Positions 1 to 12,957 of a stretch of DNA of 21,456 bases are shown in pieces. Positions within the stretch are counted from its first letter, which is position 1, and each line of letters begins with the position of its first letter. This DNA comes from a virus, in the IMG/VR virus record IMGVR_UViG_3300042559_001451, positions 1 to 21,456 of that record; one strand, written 5' to 3'. The notes beneath the pieces were generated by a model. That model had not been told where the DNA came from and ran no database searches. It was given only the letters and a program-made list of their open reading frames with translations. The position numbers and the translations under genes were made by a program.

Positions 1-288
1 GTAGAAGGACCTGTTTACAACGCACATCCAAAATTATTAACACAAGAAGAGTTCATCAACAAAATCAAAACAGATGATGAGTTCGCTAAAAAGTGGGGAT
101 TAAAAATTGAAGAACGAGAGTTGAGTTTGGAAGAAAGGTATAAAATAGCCCTCCCAATATGGAAAGAAAAATACGGTCTTTTAGCTAATATGATGGTTCC
201 TACTAATGTAGATAACACACCTTATAAAATCCCAACCAAACTAACCACAATAACATACAACGACAAAACAATAGAAAGTTATGAATGA
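1..288 (+). CDS. 3' end of an unidentified protein (partial)
   Basis: Frame 1 is open from the first base to a TGA at 286-288, giving 95 residues of a protein whose start lies outside the window. The visible part is soluble and charged, with a helical middle (LTQEEFINKIKTDDEFAKKW) and ends in KTIESYE. I do not recognise the family. Its stop overlaps the ATG of the next gene (ATGAATGA), so the two are translationally linked. Its last 17 or so codons are copied again at 613-666, where the copy still reads as a similar peptide ending in KKIESYE and a stop. Position just upstream of thymidylate synthase would fit a nucleotide-metabolism role, but nothing in the visible part proves it. Confidence 0.75.
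   Translation, partial: VEGPVYNAHPKLLTQEEFINKIKTDDEFAKKWGLKIEERELSLEERYKIALPIWKEKYGLLANMMVPTNVDNTPYKIPTKLTTITYNDKTIESYE
235..287 (+). repeat. 53-bp imperfect direct repeat, copy 1
   Basis: Positions 235-287 match 613-665 at 47 of 53 bases without gaps, by eye. This copy covers the last codons of the upstream gene and the ATG of the small gene at 281. Confidence 0.85.
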
Positions 289-5394: not shown

Positions 5395-6099
5395 ATGAAA
5401 ATGAGAATCACATTTATATCGGATACACATAATAAACACAATCAAATAAATAGTTTTTTGACTGGTGGTGATTTATTAATACATGCTGGAGATATATCTA
5501 GTAGAGGTTATGTACACGAAATAGAGAATTTTGCGAAGTGGTATGATAAAATAGATAACTACGACAGTAAAGTTTTTATATGTGGTAATCACGACTTTGG
5601 GTTTCAAGATGATGCTGAAAAAGTAAAAGGATTACTTACTGGTTATAAAAACATAGATTATCTTCAAGATGATTGGATGGGTGTTGGTGAAGATATAGAT
5701 AACATGGTTAAAATATGGGGTAGTCCATGGCAACCTGAGTTCCATAATTGGGCTTTTAATTTACCTCGTGGTGAAAAACTAATGGAGAAGTGGAACTTGA
5801 TACCAAAAGACGTTGATATCTTGGTTACTCACGGACCCGCTTTTGGTAAATTAGATTTTGTTCCATATGACGGTTTAAATGTTGGTTGTGAAGATTTGTT
5901 ATCTAAAATACAAGAAGTAAAACCTAAAATCCATGTTTGTGGTCACATCCACGAAGGTTATGGGTATGTGTTTGATGGTACAACTCACTTTATAAATGCT
6001 TCCGTTCTTAACGGACGATATGAATTCCGAAACAAACCATTAACTGTTGATTGGGATCCAAAAACAAACGAATTAGAATTTGTTGATAACGCAGGTTAA
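5395..6099 (+). CDS. Calcineurin-like metallophosphoesterase
   Basis: 234 residues with all metal-binding blocks in order: SDTH (9-12), GDISSRG (about 32-38), GNHD (about 65-68), THGP (about 146-149) and GHIHEGYG (about 180-187). This is the MPPED/YfcE-like group of metallophosphoesterases, which use two metal ions to cleave phosphomono- or diesters; the substrate cannot be deduced. The second Met (MKMR) could also be the start, but the -7 box lies 4 nt before the first, as for other genes here. It has its own promoter and ends convergently with the minus-strand genes, overlapping by 4 nt, inside a strong hairpin. Confidence 0.9.
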   Translation: MKMRITFISDTHNKHNQINSFLTGGDLLIHAGDISSRGYVHEIENFAKWYDKIDNYDSKVFICGNHDFGFQDDAEKVKGLLTGYKNIDYLQDDWMGVGEDIDNMVKIWGSPWQPEFHNWAFNLPRGEKLMEKWNLIPKDVDILVTHGPAFGKLDFVPYDGLNVGCEDLLSKIQEVKPKIHVCGHIHEGYGYVFDGTTHFINASVLNGRYEFRNKPLTVDWDPKTNELEFVDNAG

Positions 6100-6113
6100 T
6101 CTACCTGCGTTAT
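6086..6113. terminator. Bidirectional hairpin between convergent genes
   Basis: ATAACGCAGGT (6086-6096), 6-nt loop, ACCTGCGTTAT (6103-6113): an 11-bp perfect stem extended outward by wobble pairs to about 6081/6118. The stop codons of both convergent genes lie at the top of the stem and in the loop. No long T-run follows on either side, so terminator function is likely from position but not certain. Confidence 0.7.
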
Positions 6114-7673
6114 TGATACTATTTCAGCACCAAACCCTTTATTTAGTAATGTGATTTCTATTTCGTTAGGATAAAGAATATTATTCTTTATTGATTCATA
6201 AAAATCAATCATATGTTTTTGTACTTTCACAGTGATCAAATAACAATTATCACCATATGAACTATCTCTTAATGGTCCGTAATGGTTATTTAATAAATGA
6301 TTCTTTTTTACTGAGTAATGTGAACCTGGATATTGTGTATCTATTTCATCTTTACTTCCTGCAAAAACTAATCTATATAAAGTAAGACTTTCAGGTAACA
6401 TATCATAATAATCCGTTAAATTGTTTAATTCATAAAGGGCGTCGTCATTATCAAAACCCATCTCATATAAATATCCAAGTAAGTTGTCAGTGTTATCTTC
6501 GCTCAATCTAATATAACTTTCATCTAAAGTTTTTCTTTCTTCTGGTGTTGTATTTTTAGGTGAAAGAGGTGGATCCAATAAGAACTTCTCATTTAACCAA
6601 TATCTTAATTCATTTTCAACAAAAAACTCAGGAACTTCTTCATCATCAGGTTTTTCTGATGCGGTATCTGCAATGTATCTTGCAAATTTAACTTTTAATT
6701 TATCATCTAACATCGTCATTAAACCATCCGATATAAAAAATATTTTAGATAAAGGATCGGTTGTGCCTAACTCACCCTCCACTAAATTAAAGATTTTCAT
6801 AATGGTTTTACCCCACCATGTTTTATAACCGGTAGTTTCTTCTAACGTAGGCCTAAAAACTTTATTAAATGCTCTTAACAATGAACCTGTAAAACCAGCA
6901 ATTGCTAACTGAGGAAAAAACCATGGCAATAACCTTAATGTTGCCTTATAACCACCCTCACCGACATGTAAAATTAATCTATTGGTTTTGGCGTTTTCAA
7001 CCAATTCTCTTAACTGACCGAATGTTATTTTTCCTTGAGCTTTACAAAACTTTTTTGCGTCACAAATATTTTTAATTGTTTTAGATGAAGGTTCAATGTC
7101 TTCTTTTAGAGTTACAAAACTTTCACCTAAATTATATTTTGATTTTTTTAATAGGTTTTTAATAAAAAATACAATACCTCCTAATACAACACCACTTACC
7201 AATACTTGTAAATTATCGGTGGTTATATTTCTATCATTTATTATTGATCCAATGATCTTCATAACCGGATTCAATAAGAATGCAAATCCAAGTATTTCAC
7301 TTAATGAATATGAAACACCTAAAACACCTTTAACGACTTCTCTTATTATGTCCGTTGAATTTTTAATTAAATTTTTTACACCATCAAATGCCTTTGTTAA
7401 ATTCATTTCTTTTAATCTATCAAACAACAATTCTTTATTTTTGTCATTAATTAAATGTGCAATTGATGTTATAATTAAAAGGGAAATCTCTGTTTCATTA
7501 AATGAAAACCCTGATCCTGTAAGCAATCTTTCAACGGGACCTAAAAATGCTGCCATTCCTGTACCGAAGGTGAATAATATACCTGTGTTTATTTTAAGAT
7601 CCTTTAAGGTGTCCTTAAATAAATTCTCATTTATTAAACTTTTATATTGTTCTTCTGTTATTATTATTTTCAT
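6096..7673 (-). CDS. Probable packaged membrane-interacting protein with C-terminal ADP-ribosyltransferase domain
   Basis: 525 residues from the second of two tandem ATGs, chosen because MKIIITEEQ matches MKIILTESQ of the gene at 11725. The leader MKIIITEEQYKSLINE ends in I-N-E at 14-16, the cleavage pattern (L/I)xE of T4 prohead protease. Residues about 30-185 contain several hydrophobic segments (FTFGTGMAAFLG, LVSGVVLGGIVFFI). The middle (GEGGYKATLRLLPWFFPQLA; GYKTWWGKTIMKIF; DPLSKIFFISDGLM) resembles a conserved family of marine T4-like phages without known function. The last 100 residues look like an arginine-type ADP-ribosyltransferase: LTLYRL, GSHYS and NEIEIT (ExE about 504-506) give the R-S-E pattern. 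T4 Alt, which is packaged and modifies host RNA polymerase, has the same logic. The activity is inferred, not proven. Confidence 0.75.
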   Translation of the reverse strand: MKIIITEEQYKSLINENLFKDTLKDLKINTGILFTFGTGMAAFLGPVERLLTGSGFSFNETEISLLIITSIAHLINDKNKELLFDRLKEMNLTKAFDGVKNLIKNSTDIIREVVKGVLGVSYSLSEILGFAFLLNPVMKIIGSIINDRNITTDNLQVLVSGVVLGGIVFFIKNLLKKSKYNLGESFVTLKEDIEPSSKTIKNICDAKKFCKAQGKITFGQLRELVENAKTNRLILHVGEGGYKATLRLLPWFFPQLAIAGFTGSLLRAFNKVFRPTLEETTGYKTWWGKTIMKIFNLVEGELGTTDPLSKIFFISDGLMTMLDDKLKVKFARYIADTASEKPDDEEVPEFFVENELRYWLNEKFLLDPPLSPKNTTPEERKTLDESYIRLSEDNTDNLLGYLYEMGFDNDDALYELNNLTDYYDMLPESLTLYRLVFAGSKDEIDTQYPGSHYSVKKNHLLNNHYGPLRDSSYGDNCYLITVKVQKHMIDFYESIKNNILYPNEIEITLLNKGFGAEIVSITQVD

Positions 7674-7676
7674 CAT

Positions 7677-8063
7677 CTATTTTTTCAATGGTGATTTACG
7701 TTTAAGAACATCTGCGTCCTGTTTATACTTTTCATTAAACCATTTTAAAATCATATTATCATCTGGTATATAATTTTGTATTTCATCATAAGTTCTACCA
7801 TCAATCCATAAAGTTTTTGGTAGATCTTTGTATTTTGTAATTTCATCGTCATTATCATCAAAATCCCAAACTAAAGCTCTTCTTGCTTCAGAAACTCTAA
7901 AGTAATATTCCTTATTTTTAGGGTTGTAATATATGGTATTATATCCATACAAATTTGAACTAAAGTTGGATTTTCGTTTAAGGTTATTAAGTTCGGGCAT
8001 TGCAGATTCAATAAAATCATTCATCACCTCTTCCTTTAATATTTTTCTAATTAAGTTTTTCAT
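7677..8063 (-). CDS. Hypothetical protein with capsid-targeting-like leader
   Basis: 128 residues. The N-terminus MKNLIRKILKEEV is nearly the same as that of the next upstream gene (MQRLIRKILKEV) and contains L-K-E at 9-11, a match to the prohead-protease consensus (L/I)xE. The body is a small acidic-to-basic domain (YYFRVSEARRALVWDFDDND; KDLPKTLWIDGRTYDEIQNY) that I do not recognise, with a basic C-terminus KRKSPLKK. The gene starts in an ATGA overlap with the upstream gene and ends 3 nt before the ADP-ribosyltransferase start, so the three are one operon read leftwards. An alternative start after the leader (M13) is preceded by GGAAGAGGTG, but the shared leader argues for the longer form. 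Confidence 0.75.
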   Translation of the reverse strand: MKNLIRKILKEEVMNDFIESAMPELNNLKRKSNFSSNLYGYNTIYYNPKNKEYYFRVSEARRALVWDFDDNDDEITKYKDLPKTLWIDGRTYDEIQNYIPDDNMILKWFNEKYKQDADVLKRKSPLKK

Positions 8064-8545
8064 AAATAATAATCTACAAGAGATTCAAAAGTTAAATTTA
8101 ATAAATCATCCGATAACTTTTTAAGTGGTAAAAAATAGTCATCAACACTTTCATCATACATATTACCATCTTCATCATATTCATAAACACTAACCCGAAC
8201 AGAACCGTCACCTACTAAAATCATATACTCTTCAAATGTGTGTCCGTCACCACTATCATAAGCGTCATCAGAACCTAAATATATATCTCTTCCGAGTATA
8301 TCGTAAAAATATATATAACCATCAGGATCATTAGCATTAACAAGTTCATTAATTAAATCTATTTTGTGACTTTTTTTAGAAAAGTAATCGGGAACTATTT
8401 CATTAAAAATATCAATATCACCAACCATTTTTATTGTTTCTAAAACACCAACGGTTGAAATATAACCCATTAAGGTTTCTTTAAGATTTGTTAGTTTTTT
8501 TTCTTCTTCCACCTCCTTTAATATTTTTCTAATTAGTCTTTGCAT
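8060..8545 (-). CDS. Acidic hypothetical protein with capsid-targeting-like leader
   Basis: 161 residues from ATG 8545; a further upstream ATG at 8587 would add MIIFLINQTIYNII and is rejected because the leader MQRLIRKILKEVEEE matches the downstream gene. L-K-E at 9-11 fits the prohead-protease cleavage consensus. The rest is strikingly acidic, with YIYFYDILGRDIYLGSDDAY and VYEYDEDGNMYDESVDDYF, ending FESLVDYYL. No known family. First gene of the leftward operon. It would be delivered with, or matured in, the head if the leader works as proposed. Confidence 0.75.
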   Translation of the reverse strand: MQRLIRKILKEVEEEKKLTNLKETLMGYISTVGVLETIKMVGDIDIFNEIVPDYFSKKSHKIDLINELVNANDPDGYIYFYDILGRDIYLGSDDAYDSGDGHTFEEYMILVGDGSVRVSVYEYDEDGNMYDESVDDYFLPLKKLSDDLLNLTFESLVDYYL

Positions 8546-8562
8546 GATAATATTATAAATAG

Positions 8563-8594
8563 TTTGATTAATTAAAAATATAATCATACTTTTG
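8563..8594 (+). promoter_or_regulatory. Bacteroidota-type promoter for the repeat gene
   Basis: -33 TTTG (8563-8566), 20-nt spacer, -7 box TACTTTTG (8587-8594), then 4 nt (CATT) to the ATG at 8599. It faces rightwards in the divergent gap between the leader-gene operon and the repeat gene. Confidence 0.78.
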
Positions 8595-10032: not shown

Positions 10033-10437
10033 ATGGAAAAAATGTTATATTTAGTTAGAGGAATACCAGGTTCAGGAAAATCAACATTTGCTAAAACGAT
10101 AAGTCCTATTATTGTTGAGGCGGATCAATACTTTATTGATGGTGAAGGTAATTACAAGTTTGATGGGTCAAAAATAAAATTGGCTCATGAATATTGTAGA
10201 GCACAAACCGAAGCTTGGATGCAAACTAAAGGAGACCAAGTGAATGTTGATAAAATTGCAGTATCAAACACCTTTACACAGTTCTGGGAAATGGAACCAT
10301 ACTTTGAACTTGCAGAGAAATATGGGTATAAAACTTTCAGTATTGTGGTTGAAAACAGACATGGTAATAAAAGTATTCACAATGTCCCTGAAGATAAGGT
10401 GCAAATGATGAAAGACAGGTTTGAGATTAAGATTTAA
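10033..10437 (+). CDS. P-loop polynucleotide/nucleotide kinase-like protein
   Basis: 134 residues. Walker A GIPGSGKST (10-18) follows the first beta strand; EADQYF, YKFDGSKIKLAHEYCR and NTFTQFWEMEPYFELA match the AAA_33/N4BP2-like kinase group, related to the kinase domain of T4 polynucleotide kinase. The enzyme would transfer phosphate from ATP to a nucleotide or RNA/DNA 5' end; the substrate is not visible. Shorter than the full T4 enzyme and without its phosphatase domain, which could be supplied by the HAD proteins encoded elsewhere in this window. It overlaps the convergent nuclease gene by 11 nt. Confidence 0.85.
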   Translation: MEKMLYLVRGIPGSGKSTFAKTISPIIVEADQYFIDGEGNYKFDGSKIKLAHEYCRAQTEAWMQTKGDQVNVDKIAVSNTFTQFWEMEPYFELAEKYGYKTFSIVVENRHGNKSIHNVPEDKVQMMKDRFEIKI

Positions 10438-11017
10438 CAATAAACTTTTTGTAGTCAGTTGTTGAAGGTTTTTCATTTTTAAAGTAATACGTTTCAGTTT
10501 TACCGTTATATGTGATTTTTTTATAATACCCATCAGGTACAGTTGCACCAGATTTTAAAACAACTGAAGTTTTAGAAAACATACAAGTAACGGTTACTGT
10601 CACCGTATATTTTAAAGCCAATTCTCTTTCATATACCTCCAACAATCTCCAAGTAGTTCGGTTTAGGTCCTGATGTTGTAGTGTACAATTTAAATAACTA
10701 AAGGTTTTCTTTAACATTATTTTATCACAATTAAAATCTGCCGCAGGGGCCATATGACCCTTGTCCCAAACATTACTTTCATAATCTTTACTGTCTGATG
10801 TCTTAACAGAATCACAAGTAAAAAAATCCATACCTGATCTTGATGCGGAACCTGAAGGACACTGAACGGTGTATGTTACTGAAAGTGGTTGTTCTAATTT
10901 TTCGGAGTAAACGACTTGAAATATGTCGGTTTTAATTGTGACATTATCTCTTAATACTTTTTGAGATAATAAAATAAAAGGTAAAATAAAAAATAATAGT
11001 AGTAAAAACTTTTTCAT
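10427..11017 (-). CDS. Secreted DNA/RNA non-specific endonuclease (NUC1 family)
   Basis: 196 residues. An N-terminal signal peptide (MKKF then a hydrophobic core LLLLFFILPFILL, likely cleaved near SQ at 18-19) sends it to the periplasm or outside. The catalytic motif DKGHMAPAADF (85-95) matches the family's DRGHxxPxAD with catalytic His88; the metal-binding Asn (N119 in LNRTTW) and a downstream Glu (E127) follow at the expected spacing. Serratia nuclease relatives cut DNA and RNA using one magnesium ion. Somewhat shorter than usual (about 240). Four or more cysteines in the mature part fit an exported protein. It stands alone on the minus strand between plus-strand genes and faces the kinase gene tail to tail. 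Roles could be nucleotide scavenging or blocking of incoming phage DNA. Confidence 0.88.
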   Translation of the reverse strand: MKKFLLLLFFILPFILLSQKVLRDNVTIKTDIFQVVYSEKLEQPLSVTYTVQCPSGSASRSGMDFFTCDSVKTSDSKDYESNVWDKGHMAPAADFNCDKIMLKKTFSYLNCTLQHQDLNRTTWRLLEVYERELALKYTVTVTVTCMFSKTSVVLKSGATVPDGYYKKITYNGKTETYYFKNEKPSTTDYKKFIVKS

Positions 11018-11032
11018 CTAAATAAATATTAG

Positions 11033-11711: not shown

Positions 11712-11724
11712 TATATTTATTATT

Positions 11725-12957
11725 ATGAAAATCATTTTAACAGAAAGTCAATTTAGAATATTACAGGAAGCTGTCGGTGTTCCTGAAGGAATATTACAAG
11801 CGGGTGAAGAATTATACAATTTAGTATCTGATGAATTAAAAACAATAGATACCACCGAAGAAAATTATAGTTTTAAAATTTATAGTGACTTAGTAATATC
11901 TGATGTAACGTTCACTAAAATAAATGTTGAAGTTTCTGTTGAAGAAGTTGAAGATTTCCCATATGAATATCCGGTGATTGCATCTATGGGTGTTGGTAAT
12001 GAATTTAAATTTGACGAAGGTGTAATGTTGCAAGTTAACGCTAAAAGCCAAACAATAGAACTACACATAAACTTTATATCTCCCGAAGGTTGGGAACCTG
12101 AAGAGTTATATGAAGAATTCACCAAAGATAAAGAACAAACAATATCTGTAATGTCACACGAAATAATGCATAGATTTCATAGACAAAAACAAGAACACGA
12201 ACTTATTGGTGGAACTGCTGATTATAACGTTTATTCTTCAGGAACTTTAAGATTTGGAATACCTGTGATTAATGAATTTATGAGGTATAGTTATTTTATA
12301 CAACAATCAGAAAACATTGTAAGACCAACTGAGGTTGCCTCAAGAATGATCCAAAAAGGAATTAAAAAACAAGATTTTTATGATTTTATTGTAAATGATG
12401 AGGTTTTTACTGAACTTAAAAAAATACGTGAATTTTCATATGATTATTTAATGGAGCAGTTATACGAACAAATGGATAGTATTGATGGATTAATTAGTCA
12501 TGCGGGTGGAGATCCTGATACTATGAATGATGAAGAAAAAATTAAATCAGTTTTGGAACTTATTTATATTAACTTAGTTAATGCTAAAGTGGATACATTT
12601 GATAATTTCTTTTATACACATTCTGAAAAAATGGCACAAATGTTCAGTGGATTTATGGGTCAATTATTTGGTAAAACACAAGAACCAAGTGGAGAAAAAG
12701 AAAAGGTTAGAAGAAAGTTTATTAATCACGTTTCAAAATATAAAGATAGAGAAATGGACTTCTTCGTGGATGAATGTGAAAGATTTAATTATGTCTCAAC
12801 AAATTTAATGAAAAAAATATCAAAAATATATTCTCTCCTTCCTGATGAAAAAGAACAAACAAACGAATCTATATTAGATTGGGACTTACACCAAAAACTT
12901 ATGGAAAAAAGATATGGTAAAAGACCAATAGAAACTTCCTACAAATTCAAAAAATAA
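11725..12957 (+). CDS. Zinc metalloprotease-like protein with capsid-targeting-like leader
   Basis: 410 residues. The leader MKIILTESQFRILQEA (1-16) ends in L-Q-E at 13-15 followed by Ala, matching the (L/I)xE cleavage consensus of T4-type prohead protease, and closely resembles the start of the 6096-7673 protein. HEIMH (145-149) within TISVMSHEIMHRFHRQKQ is an HExxH zinc motif; RPTEVASRM with Glu203 is a plausible third ligand about 54 residues later, as in gluzincins. The rest is helical and acidic, ending in a basic tail (RYGKRPIETSYKFKK). No exact family is known to me. A protease carried in the head and injected would act on host proteins at infection; a role in head maturation is the alternative. 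Confidence 0.8.
   Translation: MKIILTESQFRILQEAVGVPEGILQAGEELYNLVSDELKTIDTTEENYSFKIYSDLVISDVTFTKINVEVSVEEVEDFPYEYPVIASMGVGNEFKFDEGVMLQVNAKSQTIELHINFISPEGWEPEELYEEFTKDKEQTISVMSHEIMHRFHRQKQEHELIGGTADYNVYSSGTLRFGIPVINEFMRYSYFIQQSENIVRPTEVASRMIQKGIKKQDFYDFIVNDEVFTELKKIREFSYDYLMEQLYEQMDSIDGLISHAGGDPDTMNDEEKIKSVLELIYINLVNAKVDTFDNFFYTHSEKMAQMFSGFMGQLFGKTQEPSGEKEKVRRKFINHVSKYKDREMDFFVDECERFNYVSTNLMKKISKIYSLLPDEKEQTNESILDWDLHQKLMEKRYGKRPIETSYKFKK

What the first reader, a model, noticed from the sequence alone, without database searches (positions are those of the whole stretch)
6096..6420. Probable Alt-like ADP-ribosyltransferase domain at the end of a membrane-interacting protein
The last 100 residues carry LTLYRL, GSHYS and NEIEIT in the order of the R-S-E triad with an ExE motif. 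It is attached to a long protein with several hydrophobic segments and a packaging-type leader. T4 Alt is packaged, injected and modifies RNA polymerase; a form joined to membrane segments would be different and might assist its own passage through the host envelope.
Basis: partly seen in the sequence, partly recalled or inferred. Interest (0 to 1): 0.6.

Follow-up and report, generated by a model that had tools for sequence, protein, structure and literature searches.

The report
Capsid-packaged phage ADP-ribosyltransferase in cleavable chain
The end of this phage protein folds like an ADP-ribosyltransferase (an enzyme that tags other molecules using NAD), and its start and its module joints look like the address tag and cut sites that T4-type phages use to load proteins into the head, so it is probably a new kind of enzyme that the phage injects into the bacterium, although no activity has been measured.

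Summary
The ORF is on the minus strand (6096-7676, 526 aa). Its last ~140 residues belong to an unannotated phage family (105 IMG/VR hits; no Pfam, PHROG or PDB sequence match, and none in 50,697 phage records). AlphaFold2 gives a confident ART fold (pLDDT 91). R435, H453 and E505-x-E507 are invariant in the 43-row family alignment. The Ser of R-S-E is not: S452 and S455 vary, while His453 never does. Most relatives are standalone ~140-aa proteins with a short N-terminal leader ending in (I/L)-x-E. Relatives up to 290 kb encode a T4-type prohead protease and gp23 capsid protein, whose processing site (LINE|A) matches this leader (LINE|N). In the fusions, module boundaries fall on (I/L)-x-E sites. 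One syntenic relative carries leader plus ART alone. I conclude it is a late-expressed, head-packaged ART carried in a modular chain that the prohead protease probably cuts apart. The membrane-passage idea is not supported. Packaging, cutting and catalysis are all inferred. The leader marks at least 22 of 300 ORFs in one 257-kb relative, so it predicts a testable injected set.

The parts
6096..7676 (-). Whole ORF, 526 aa: leader + N-terminal hydrophobic module + middle module + C-terminal ART module
   Evidence: full-length homologues L002, L003, L004, L005, L031 and a start-truncated one, L029
6099..6521 (-). C-terminal ADP-ribosyltransferase-fold module, residues 386-526; predicted mature product would start at Ser387 after LDE|S
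   Evidence: family alignment A4, AF2 pLDDT 91.2 / pTM 0.84, PDB structural matches mostly ARTs
6372..6374 (-). Arg435 codon, first catalytic position (43/43 conserved)
   Evidence: end positions of the cholera toxin A1 alignment (44..141 to 1..131) put it at Arg7 if no gap lies between
6312..6326 (-). G451-S-H453-Y-S455 in place of the S-T-S motif; Gly and His invariant, both Ser variable
6156..6164 (-). E505-x-E507 (ExE motif), 42/42 of rows that reach it
   Evidence: would fall at Glu110/Glu112 of cholera toxin A1 and Glu127/Glu129 of pertussis S1 from the end points, if no gaps lie between
7626..7676 (-). N-terminal leader MMKIIITEEQYKSLINE| (capsid-targeting-like, ends in (I/L)-x-E)
   Evidence: same LINE site in the relatives' gp23 capsid protein
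7128..7625 (-). N-terminal hydrophobic helical module, residues 18-183; function unknown
   Evidence: hydropathy; no confident model
6564..7106 (-). Middle module, residues 191-371, shared with proteins of other architecture in jumbo phages and with 634-735-kb phages
7101..7124 (-). Predicted protease sites between N-terminal and middle modules: NLGE|S and TLKE|D
6519..6527 (-). Predicted protease site between middle and ART modules: LDE|S
7677..8063 (-). Co-oriented upstream gene, 128 aa, leader MKNLIRKILKE|EV
8060..8545 (-). First gene of the leadered operon, leader MQRLIRKILKE|VEEE; start reassigned to 8545 because the promoter-like element lies downstream of the longer ATG at 8587
8555..8561 (-). 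TATTTAT late-promoter-like element before the three-gene leadered operon
11725..12957 (+). Another leadered protein (MKIILTESQFRILQE|AVG, 410 aa) in the same window, with TATTTAT just upstream at 11714

Best explanation
This is a head-packaged ADP-ribosyltransferase of a T4-like jumbo phage, probably infecting Bacteroidota. (1) Shown in silico: the C-terminal module has an ART fold with invariant R435, H453 and E505-x-E507. (2) Inferred: the three-gene operon is transcribed late from a TATTTAT element; the leader targets the protein to the prohead core; the phage's gp21-type S77 protease cuts after (I/L)-x-E, removing the leader and cutting the chain at LGE|S, LKE|D and LDE|S, so the ART is freed inside the head. 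(3) Inferred: the ART is injected with the DNA and, like T4 Alt, ADP-ribosylates a host target early in infection. The target is unknown.
For: Fold: pLDDT 91.2, pTM 0.84. Of the 50 PDB entries listed by VIA-align nearly all are ART-superfamily or ART-like: TreX Z 6.9, PltA-type 6.7, LT-IIb 6.5, cholera A1 6.4, pertussis S1 5.9, Tpt1 5.9, ParT 5.3. Invariant residues. T4-type head: PF03420 (S77/gp21) in 14/20 relatives' records and Gp23 in 13/20; the window's RNA ligase is 74-78% identical to that of two of these genomes. Cut-site match: the relatives' gp23 reads FLINE|AT where T4 gp23 reads FLTE|AE; the window leader reads LINE|N. T4 Alt itself has a 6-aa leader MELITE| cleaved off and a late promoter. 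Leaders: 22/300 ORFs in a 257-kb relative against 2/907 internal Met positions; 0/56 in a Flavobacterium phage annotated with a non-T4-type head. Separators: 14/14 module breakpoints lie within 3 residues of an (I/L)-x-E cut. TATTTAT lies within 40 nt upstream of 73/300 genes, about 5 expected by my estimate from 274 occurrences.
Against: No enzymatic or virion proteomic data. The S-T-S Ser is not conserved, and no family profile links the module to a known ART family. The window record (21 kb) has no head gene; the T4-type head is inferred from relatives. (I/L)-x-E is common in this protein (17 sites in 526 residues), so most occurrences cannot be cut sites. About ten ARTs of the family have no leader, so not every member need be packaged; some of these also have TATTTAT upstream. 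Breakpoint positions are uncertain by a few residues and were picked from alignments by me, so the nominal P (5e-12) is optimistic. Z scores of 5-7 are only middling by the tool's own note.
Confidence: 0.62

Rival explanations
1. The protein is one intact multidomain effector (polyvalent-protein style). The hydrophobic module anchors or translocates the ART at the host membrane, and (I/L)-x-E tripeptides at the joints are ordinary linker sequence.
For: N-terminal module has two hydrophobic stretches; fused full-length forms are conserved at 71-88% identity in several phages; (I/L)-x-E is frequent in the protein.
Against: L024, at the same locus, has leader + ART only; L021 lacks the middle module; nearly all other relatives lack the hydrophobic module. 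Breakpoints in unrelated fusions sit on (I/L)-x-E sites.
Confidence: 0.18
2. The module has an ART fold but acts as a NAD(P) glycohydrolase, nucleic-acid modifier or NAD-signal scavenger rather than a protein ADP-ribosyltransferase; for instance it counters NAD-based defence.
For: His replaces the S-T-S Ser; structural matches include RNA phosphotransferase Tpt1, ParT and the toxin Tse6; ART-fold NADases exist (PMC13285283).
Against: The invariant ExE motif typifies transfer-competent R-S-E ARTs, and T4 Alt is a close functional precedent with the same delivery features.
Confidence: 0.3
3. The leadered proteins are internal scaffold or inner-body proteins that never leave the head; the ART fold is a structural relic.
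For: T4 core proteins carry similar short leaders and are digested in the head (PMC9958956).
Against: Catalytic Arg and ExE are among the most conserved positions in the family, which is not expected of a relic.
Confidence: 0.08

Closest known systems
T4 Alt (packaged, injected ADP-ribosyltransferase; Pfam PF03496)
   Same: ART fold; LPxxxTLYR and NExE motif spacing; short leader ending in (I/L)-x-E (MELITE| in Alt); late promoter
   Different: 141 aa against 682 aa; G-x-H-[YF]-S instead of F-V-S-T-S; not matched by PF03496; found in fusions with unrelated modules
T4 capsid-targeting sequence and gp21 prohead-protease substrates (IPs, Alt, gp24, gp23)
   Same: Short amphipathic N-terminal leader followed by (I/L)-x-E; S77 protease and Gp23 in relatives; T4 gp24 begins MAKINELLRE|S
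   Different: The leader is attached to tens of unrelated proteins per genome and similar sites occur between modules of fused proteins
Polyvalent proteins of phages and plasmids (PMC5512222)
   Same: Modular, mix-and-match, predicted injected proteins that can include ART domains
   Different: Here modules are separated by prohead-protease-type sites and the same module also occurs alone with its own leader; no peptidase domain is needed in the chain. The identity of most modules is unknown
Inner-body / ejection proteins of phiKZ and SPN3US
   Same: Head-packaged proteins processed by an S77-type protease after x-x-E (A-X-E in SPN3US, S/A/G-X-E in phiKZ)
   Different: There one long propeptide is removed from each protein; chains of several kept modules are not described in the papers read

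Membership tests
ART superfamily (fold) | Split beta-sheet ART fold | tested here: met
   AF2 model pLDDT 91.2; ART-superfamily and ART-like entries dominate PDB matches, Z 4.5-6.9, rmsd about 2.5-4 A. A prediction, not a structure.
ART superfamily, R-S-E clade | Catalytic Arg on strand 1 | tested here: met
   R435 43/43; end points of the cholera A1 and pertussis S1 alignments place it at Arg7 / Arg9 if ungapped
ART superfamily, R-S-E clade | S-T-S motif / conserved Ser on strand 2 | tested here: not met
   S452: S37, T2, N, I, A, K; S455: S38, A4, G1; the invariant residue is His453
ART superfamily, R-S-E clade | ExE with catalytic Glu | tested here: met
   E505 and E507 42/42 of rows covering them
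Alt/VIP2 family (PF03496) | Match to the family profile | tested here: not met
   No PF03496 hit for any of the 43 members at E up to 1, while T4 Alt scores 5.8e-36; hhalign to Alt alone or to 9 Alts probability 7% and 4%, P 0.0055 and 0.01
T4-type prohead-protease substrate with capsid-targeting leader | Short N-terminal leader ending in (I/L)-x-E | tested here: met
   MMKIIITEEQYKSLINE|N; leader patterns in 22/300 ORFs of G004 against 2/907 internal Met
T4-type prohead-protease substrate with capsid-targeting leader | Cognate S77 protease and gp23 in the same genome | tested here: inconclusive
   Present in 14/20 and 13/20 relatives' records; the 21-kb window is a fragment without head genes
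T4-type prohead-protease substrate with capsid-targeting leader | Present in virions, cleaved at the site | not testable with these tools
   No virion proteome for this group was found
Polyvalent proteins | Two or more distinct effector domains in one injected polypeptide | tested here: inconclusive
   Only the ART is identified; other modules have no family and the model of residues 1-386 failed (pLDDT 40.7)

The most novel reading that the evidence does not exclude
T4-like jumbo phages of this group encode beads-on-a-string polyproteins: several injected effectors, including this ART, are translated as one chain behind a single capsid-targeting leader, enter the prohead together and are cut into separate proteins there by the prohead protease at (I/L)-x-E sites. 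The same leader grammar marks the phage's whole set of injected proteins.
Probability: 0.45. Interest if true: 0.78.

Novelty: new variant of a known kind. Interest (0 to 1): 0.62.

Why it matters
Jumbo phages have hundreds of unassigned genes, and a 2026 review names only one characterised anti-defence protein from them, Tad1, which is injected (PMC13282480). If the leader is a packaging address, it gives a simple sequence rule that lists each phage's injected proteins, at least 22 in one 257-kb genome. The joint sites, if cut, would show that phages use polyproteins to load effectors at fixed ratios behind one leader. The ART family is a new, divergent enzyme family with His where Ser is expected, small enough for quick biochemistry.

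Tried and rejected
Pfam, PHROG and PDB-sequence searches of the whole protein, the module and all 43 relatives gave nothing significant. The phages collection has no relative of the ART, only of the middle module in 634-735-kb phages. A scan of bacterial genomes for the ART found none. The AF2 model of residues 1-386 failed (pLDDT 40.7), so I make no claim about its fold. I considered that leaderless ARTs might be early genes (like T4 ModA/ModB), but several have TATTTAT upstream, so I dropped it. Profile comparison with Alt was attempted twice and stays inconclusive. No virion mass-spectrometry data for the related Flavobacterium phage immuto were found; its leaders are fewer (5/114 ORFs in 100 kb). 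Literature searches for prohead-protease-cut effector polyproteins found none in the held library; subscription journals are largely missing. My reading of cupin-like and HExxH-like modules in L006/L022 is by eye; Pfam gives only a weak Cupin_2 hit (E 0.03).

Full report
OBSERVATION. The window is a 21,456-base virus record. The feature is on the minus strand: ORF 6096-7676, 526 aa. The quoted motifs are the C-terminal ones: LTLYRL (R435), GSHYS (S452, H453, S455) and NEIEIT (E505, E507).

THE MODULE IS A FAMILY. A first scan showed that the protein is mosaic: some relatives share only residues about 190-386, one only 381-526. A profile of the C-terminal module then found distant copies in relatives' records and 105 hits in IMG/VR, of which the best 80 were kept. 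Most are standalone proteins of 136-165 aa. In 43 non-redundant rows R435, G451, H453, N498, N499, L501 and Y502 are invariant, and E505 and E507 are invariant in rows that reach them. S452 and S455 vary. No known family matches by sequence.

FOLD. AlphaFold2 on this alignment gives pLDDT 91.2 and pTM 0.84 with order H-H-E(YR)-E(HYS)-H-E-H-E(ExE)-E. Nearly all of the 50 PDB entries listed by VIA-align are ART-superfamily or ART-like proteins: Rhs toxins TreX/TreTu, PltA-type, LT-IIb, cholera A1, pertussis S1, Tpt1, ParT, Tse6, pierisin, tankyrase. The end points of the cholera A1 alignment (44..141 to 1..131) place R435 at Arg7 and E505/E507 at Glu110/Glu112 if no gap lies between; those of pertussis S1 (..141 to ..148) place E507 at Glu129. 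The catalytic residue numbers of those toxins are from my own knowledge. Foldseek's own E-values are modest (best 0.03), and Z 5-7 is middling. What carries the call is that so many unrelated ART families lead the list and the conserved residues fall at the catalytic positions. The best BFVD matches are uncharacterised phage proteins.

LEADER AND HEAD TYPE. The ORF starts MMKIIITEEQYKSLINE|N. The two co-directional genes before it start MKNLIRKILKE|EV and MQRLIRKILKE|VEEE. Relatives' ART genes start MKLLPILSE|II, MKLLGLLNE|TI, MREIIKKVLKE|FT and so on. In a 257-kb relative 22 of 300 ORFs carry such leaders against 2 of 907 internal methionines. A Flavobacterium phage annotated with MuF, prohead protease and capsid precursor (not T4-type) has 0 of 56. 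Fourteen of 20 relatives' records encode an S77 prohead protease and 13 a Gp23 capsid protein. The window's RNA ligase is 74-78% identical to that of two of these genomes, so the window belongs to this phage group. The closest named phage by capsid gene is Flavobacterium phage immuto. In the relatives' gp23, FLINE|AT aligns with T4 FLTE|AE, which T4 cuts after residue 65 (PMC9958956). So the group's expected protease site is the sequence that ends the leader. T4 Alt shows the same layout: late promoter and a 6-residue leader MELITE removed in maturation.

MODULE JOINTS. Relatives L083, L081 and L086 are fusions of 1039, 762 and 360 aa ending in the ART. Their insertions and deletions start and stop at LNE|S, LTE|S, IRE|Q, ITE|R and ITE|S. 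L021 lost the middle module between L-G-E|S and L-D-E|S. The middle module starts at LNE|E, INE|E, LKE|E or ISE|D in unrelated contexts. Fourteen of 14 events I treated as separate are within 3 residues of an (I/L)-x-E cut, with a per-event chance of 0.12-0.22. Caveats: the events were chosen by me from alignments, some placements are ambiguous by a few residues, and some share ancestry. The window protein has 17 (I/L)-x-E tripeptides in all, so a folded context must decide which are cut.

EXPRESSION. TATTTAT lies just upstream of nearly all leadered standalone ART genes and of some capsid genes and within 40 nt of 73/300 genes in the 257-kb relative, where I estimate about 5 by chance. It is the reverse complement of the core of the T4 late promoter TATAAATA (own knowledge). 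In the window it precedes the leadered operon (8561, minus) and another leadered gene (11714, plus). Some leaderless ARTs also have it, so it does not separate the two classes.

HOW IT PROBABLY WORKS. Late transcription, leader-driven entry into the prohead core, cutting by the S77 protease, and injection with the DNA, then modification of a host target using NAD. The fold, residue conservation, T4-type head genes in relatives and coincidence of the sites are computed here. Packaging, cutting, injection and catalysis are inferred by analogy with T4.

NOVELTY. Packaged phage ARTs are known, and surveys argue that they are common (PMC9503650); multidomain injected proteins are known (PMC5512222). 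New here are the ART family itself, the His-for-Ser site, the genome-wide leader grammar in this phage group, and modules strung together with protease-type sites. I found no earlier account in the held library, which does not prove there is none.

Noticed in passing
L156-L168 (257-kb relative G004); L147-L150 upstream of the capsid gene; window 8555-8561 (-), 11714-11720 (+), 11022-11028 (-): TATTTAT late-promoter-like element upstream of structural and leadered genes, far above chance (73/300 genes; about 5 expected by my estimate).
   Followed up: partly
L083, L081, L086: Long fusions (up to 1039 aa) whose modules are separated by LNE|S-type sites, including a duplicated ~200-aa module; no Pfam family for L083.
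   Followed up: partly
window 6564-7106 (-); LR756501, LR756502, LR745206: The middle module is a widespread family of unknown function, also in 634-735-kb phages at 32-35% identity.
   Followed up: partly
L006, L009, L012, L014, L017, L022: The middle module is followed by a conserved cupin-like stretch (ELKWHFD...IPKGxYHRVIKG) and in L006/L022 by a stretch with a HExRH motif, possibly a metalloprotease; joints read F-[KS]-E|S, so F may also be accepted at P3.
   Followed up: no
window 10427-11017 (-): DNA/RNA non-specific endonuclease (PF01223, 2.6e-23) with a signal-peptide-like N-terminus and TATTTAT just upstream: a possibly secreted phage nuclease.
   Followed up: no
L040, L059, L060, L063, L074, L088, L090, L096, L098: Leaderless members of the ART family that start directly at the domain; they might act without packaging.
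   Followed up: partly
L009, L010, L011 (L043-L045): The ART gene is interrupted by an in-frame TAA in three near-identical contigs: a possible pseudogene or natural loss.
   Followed up: no
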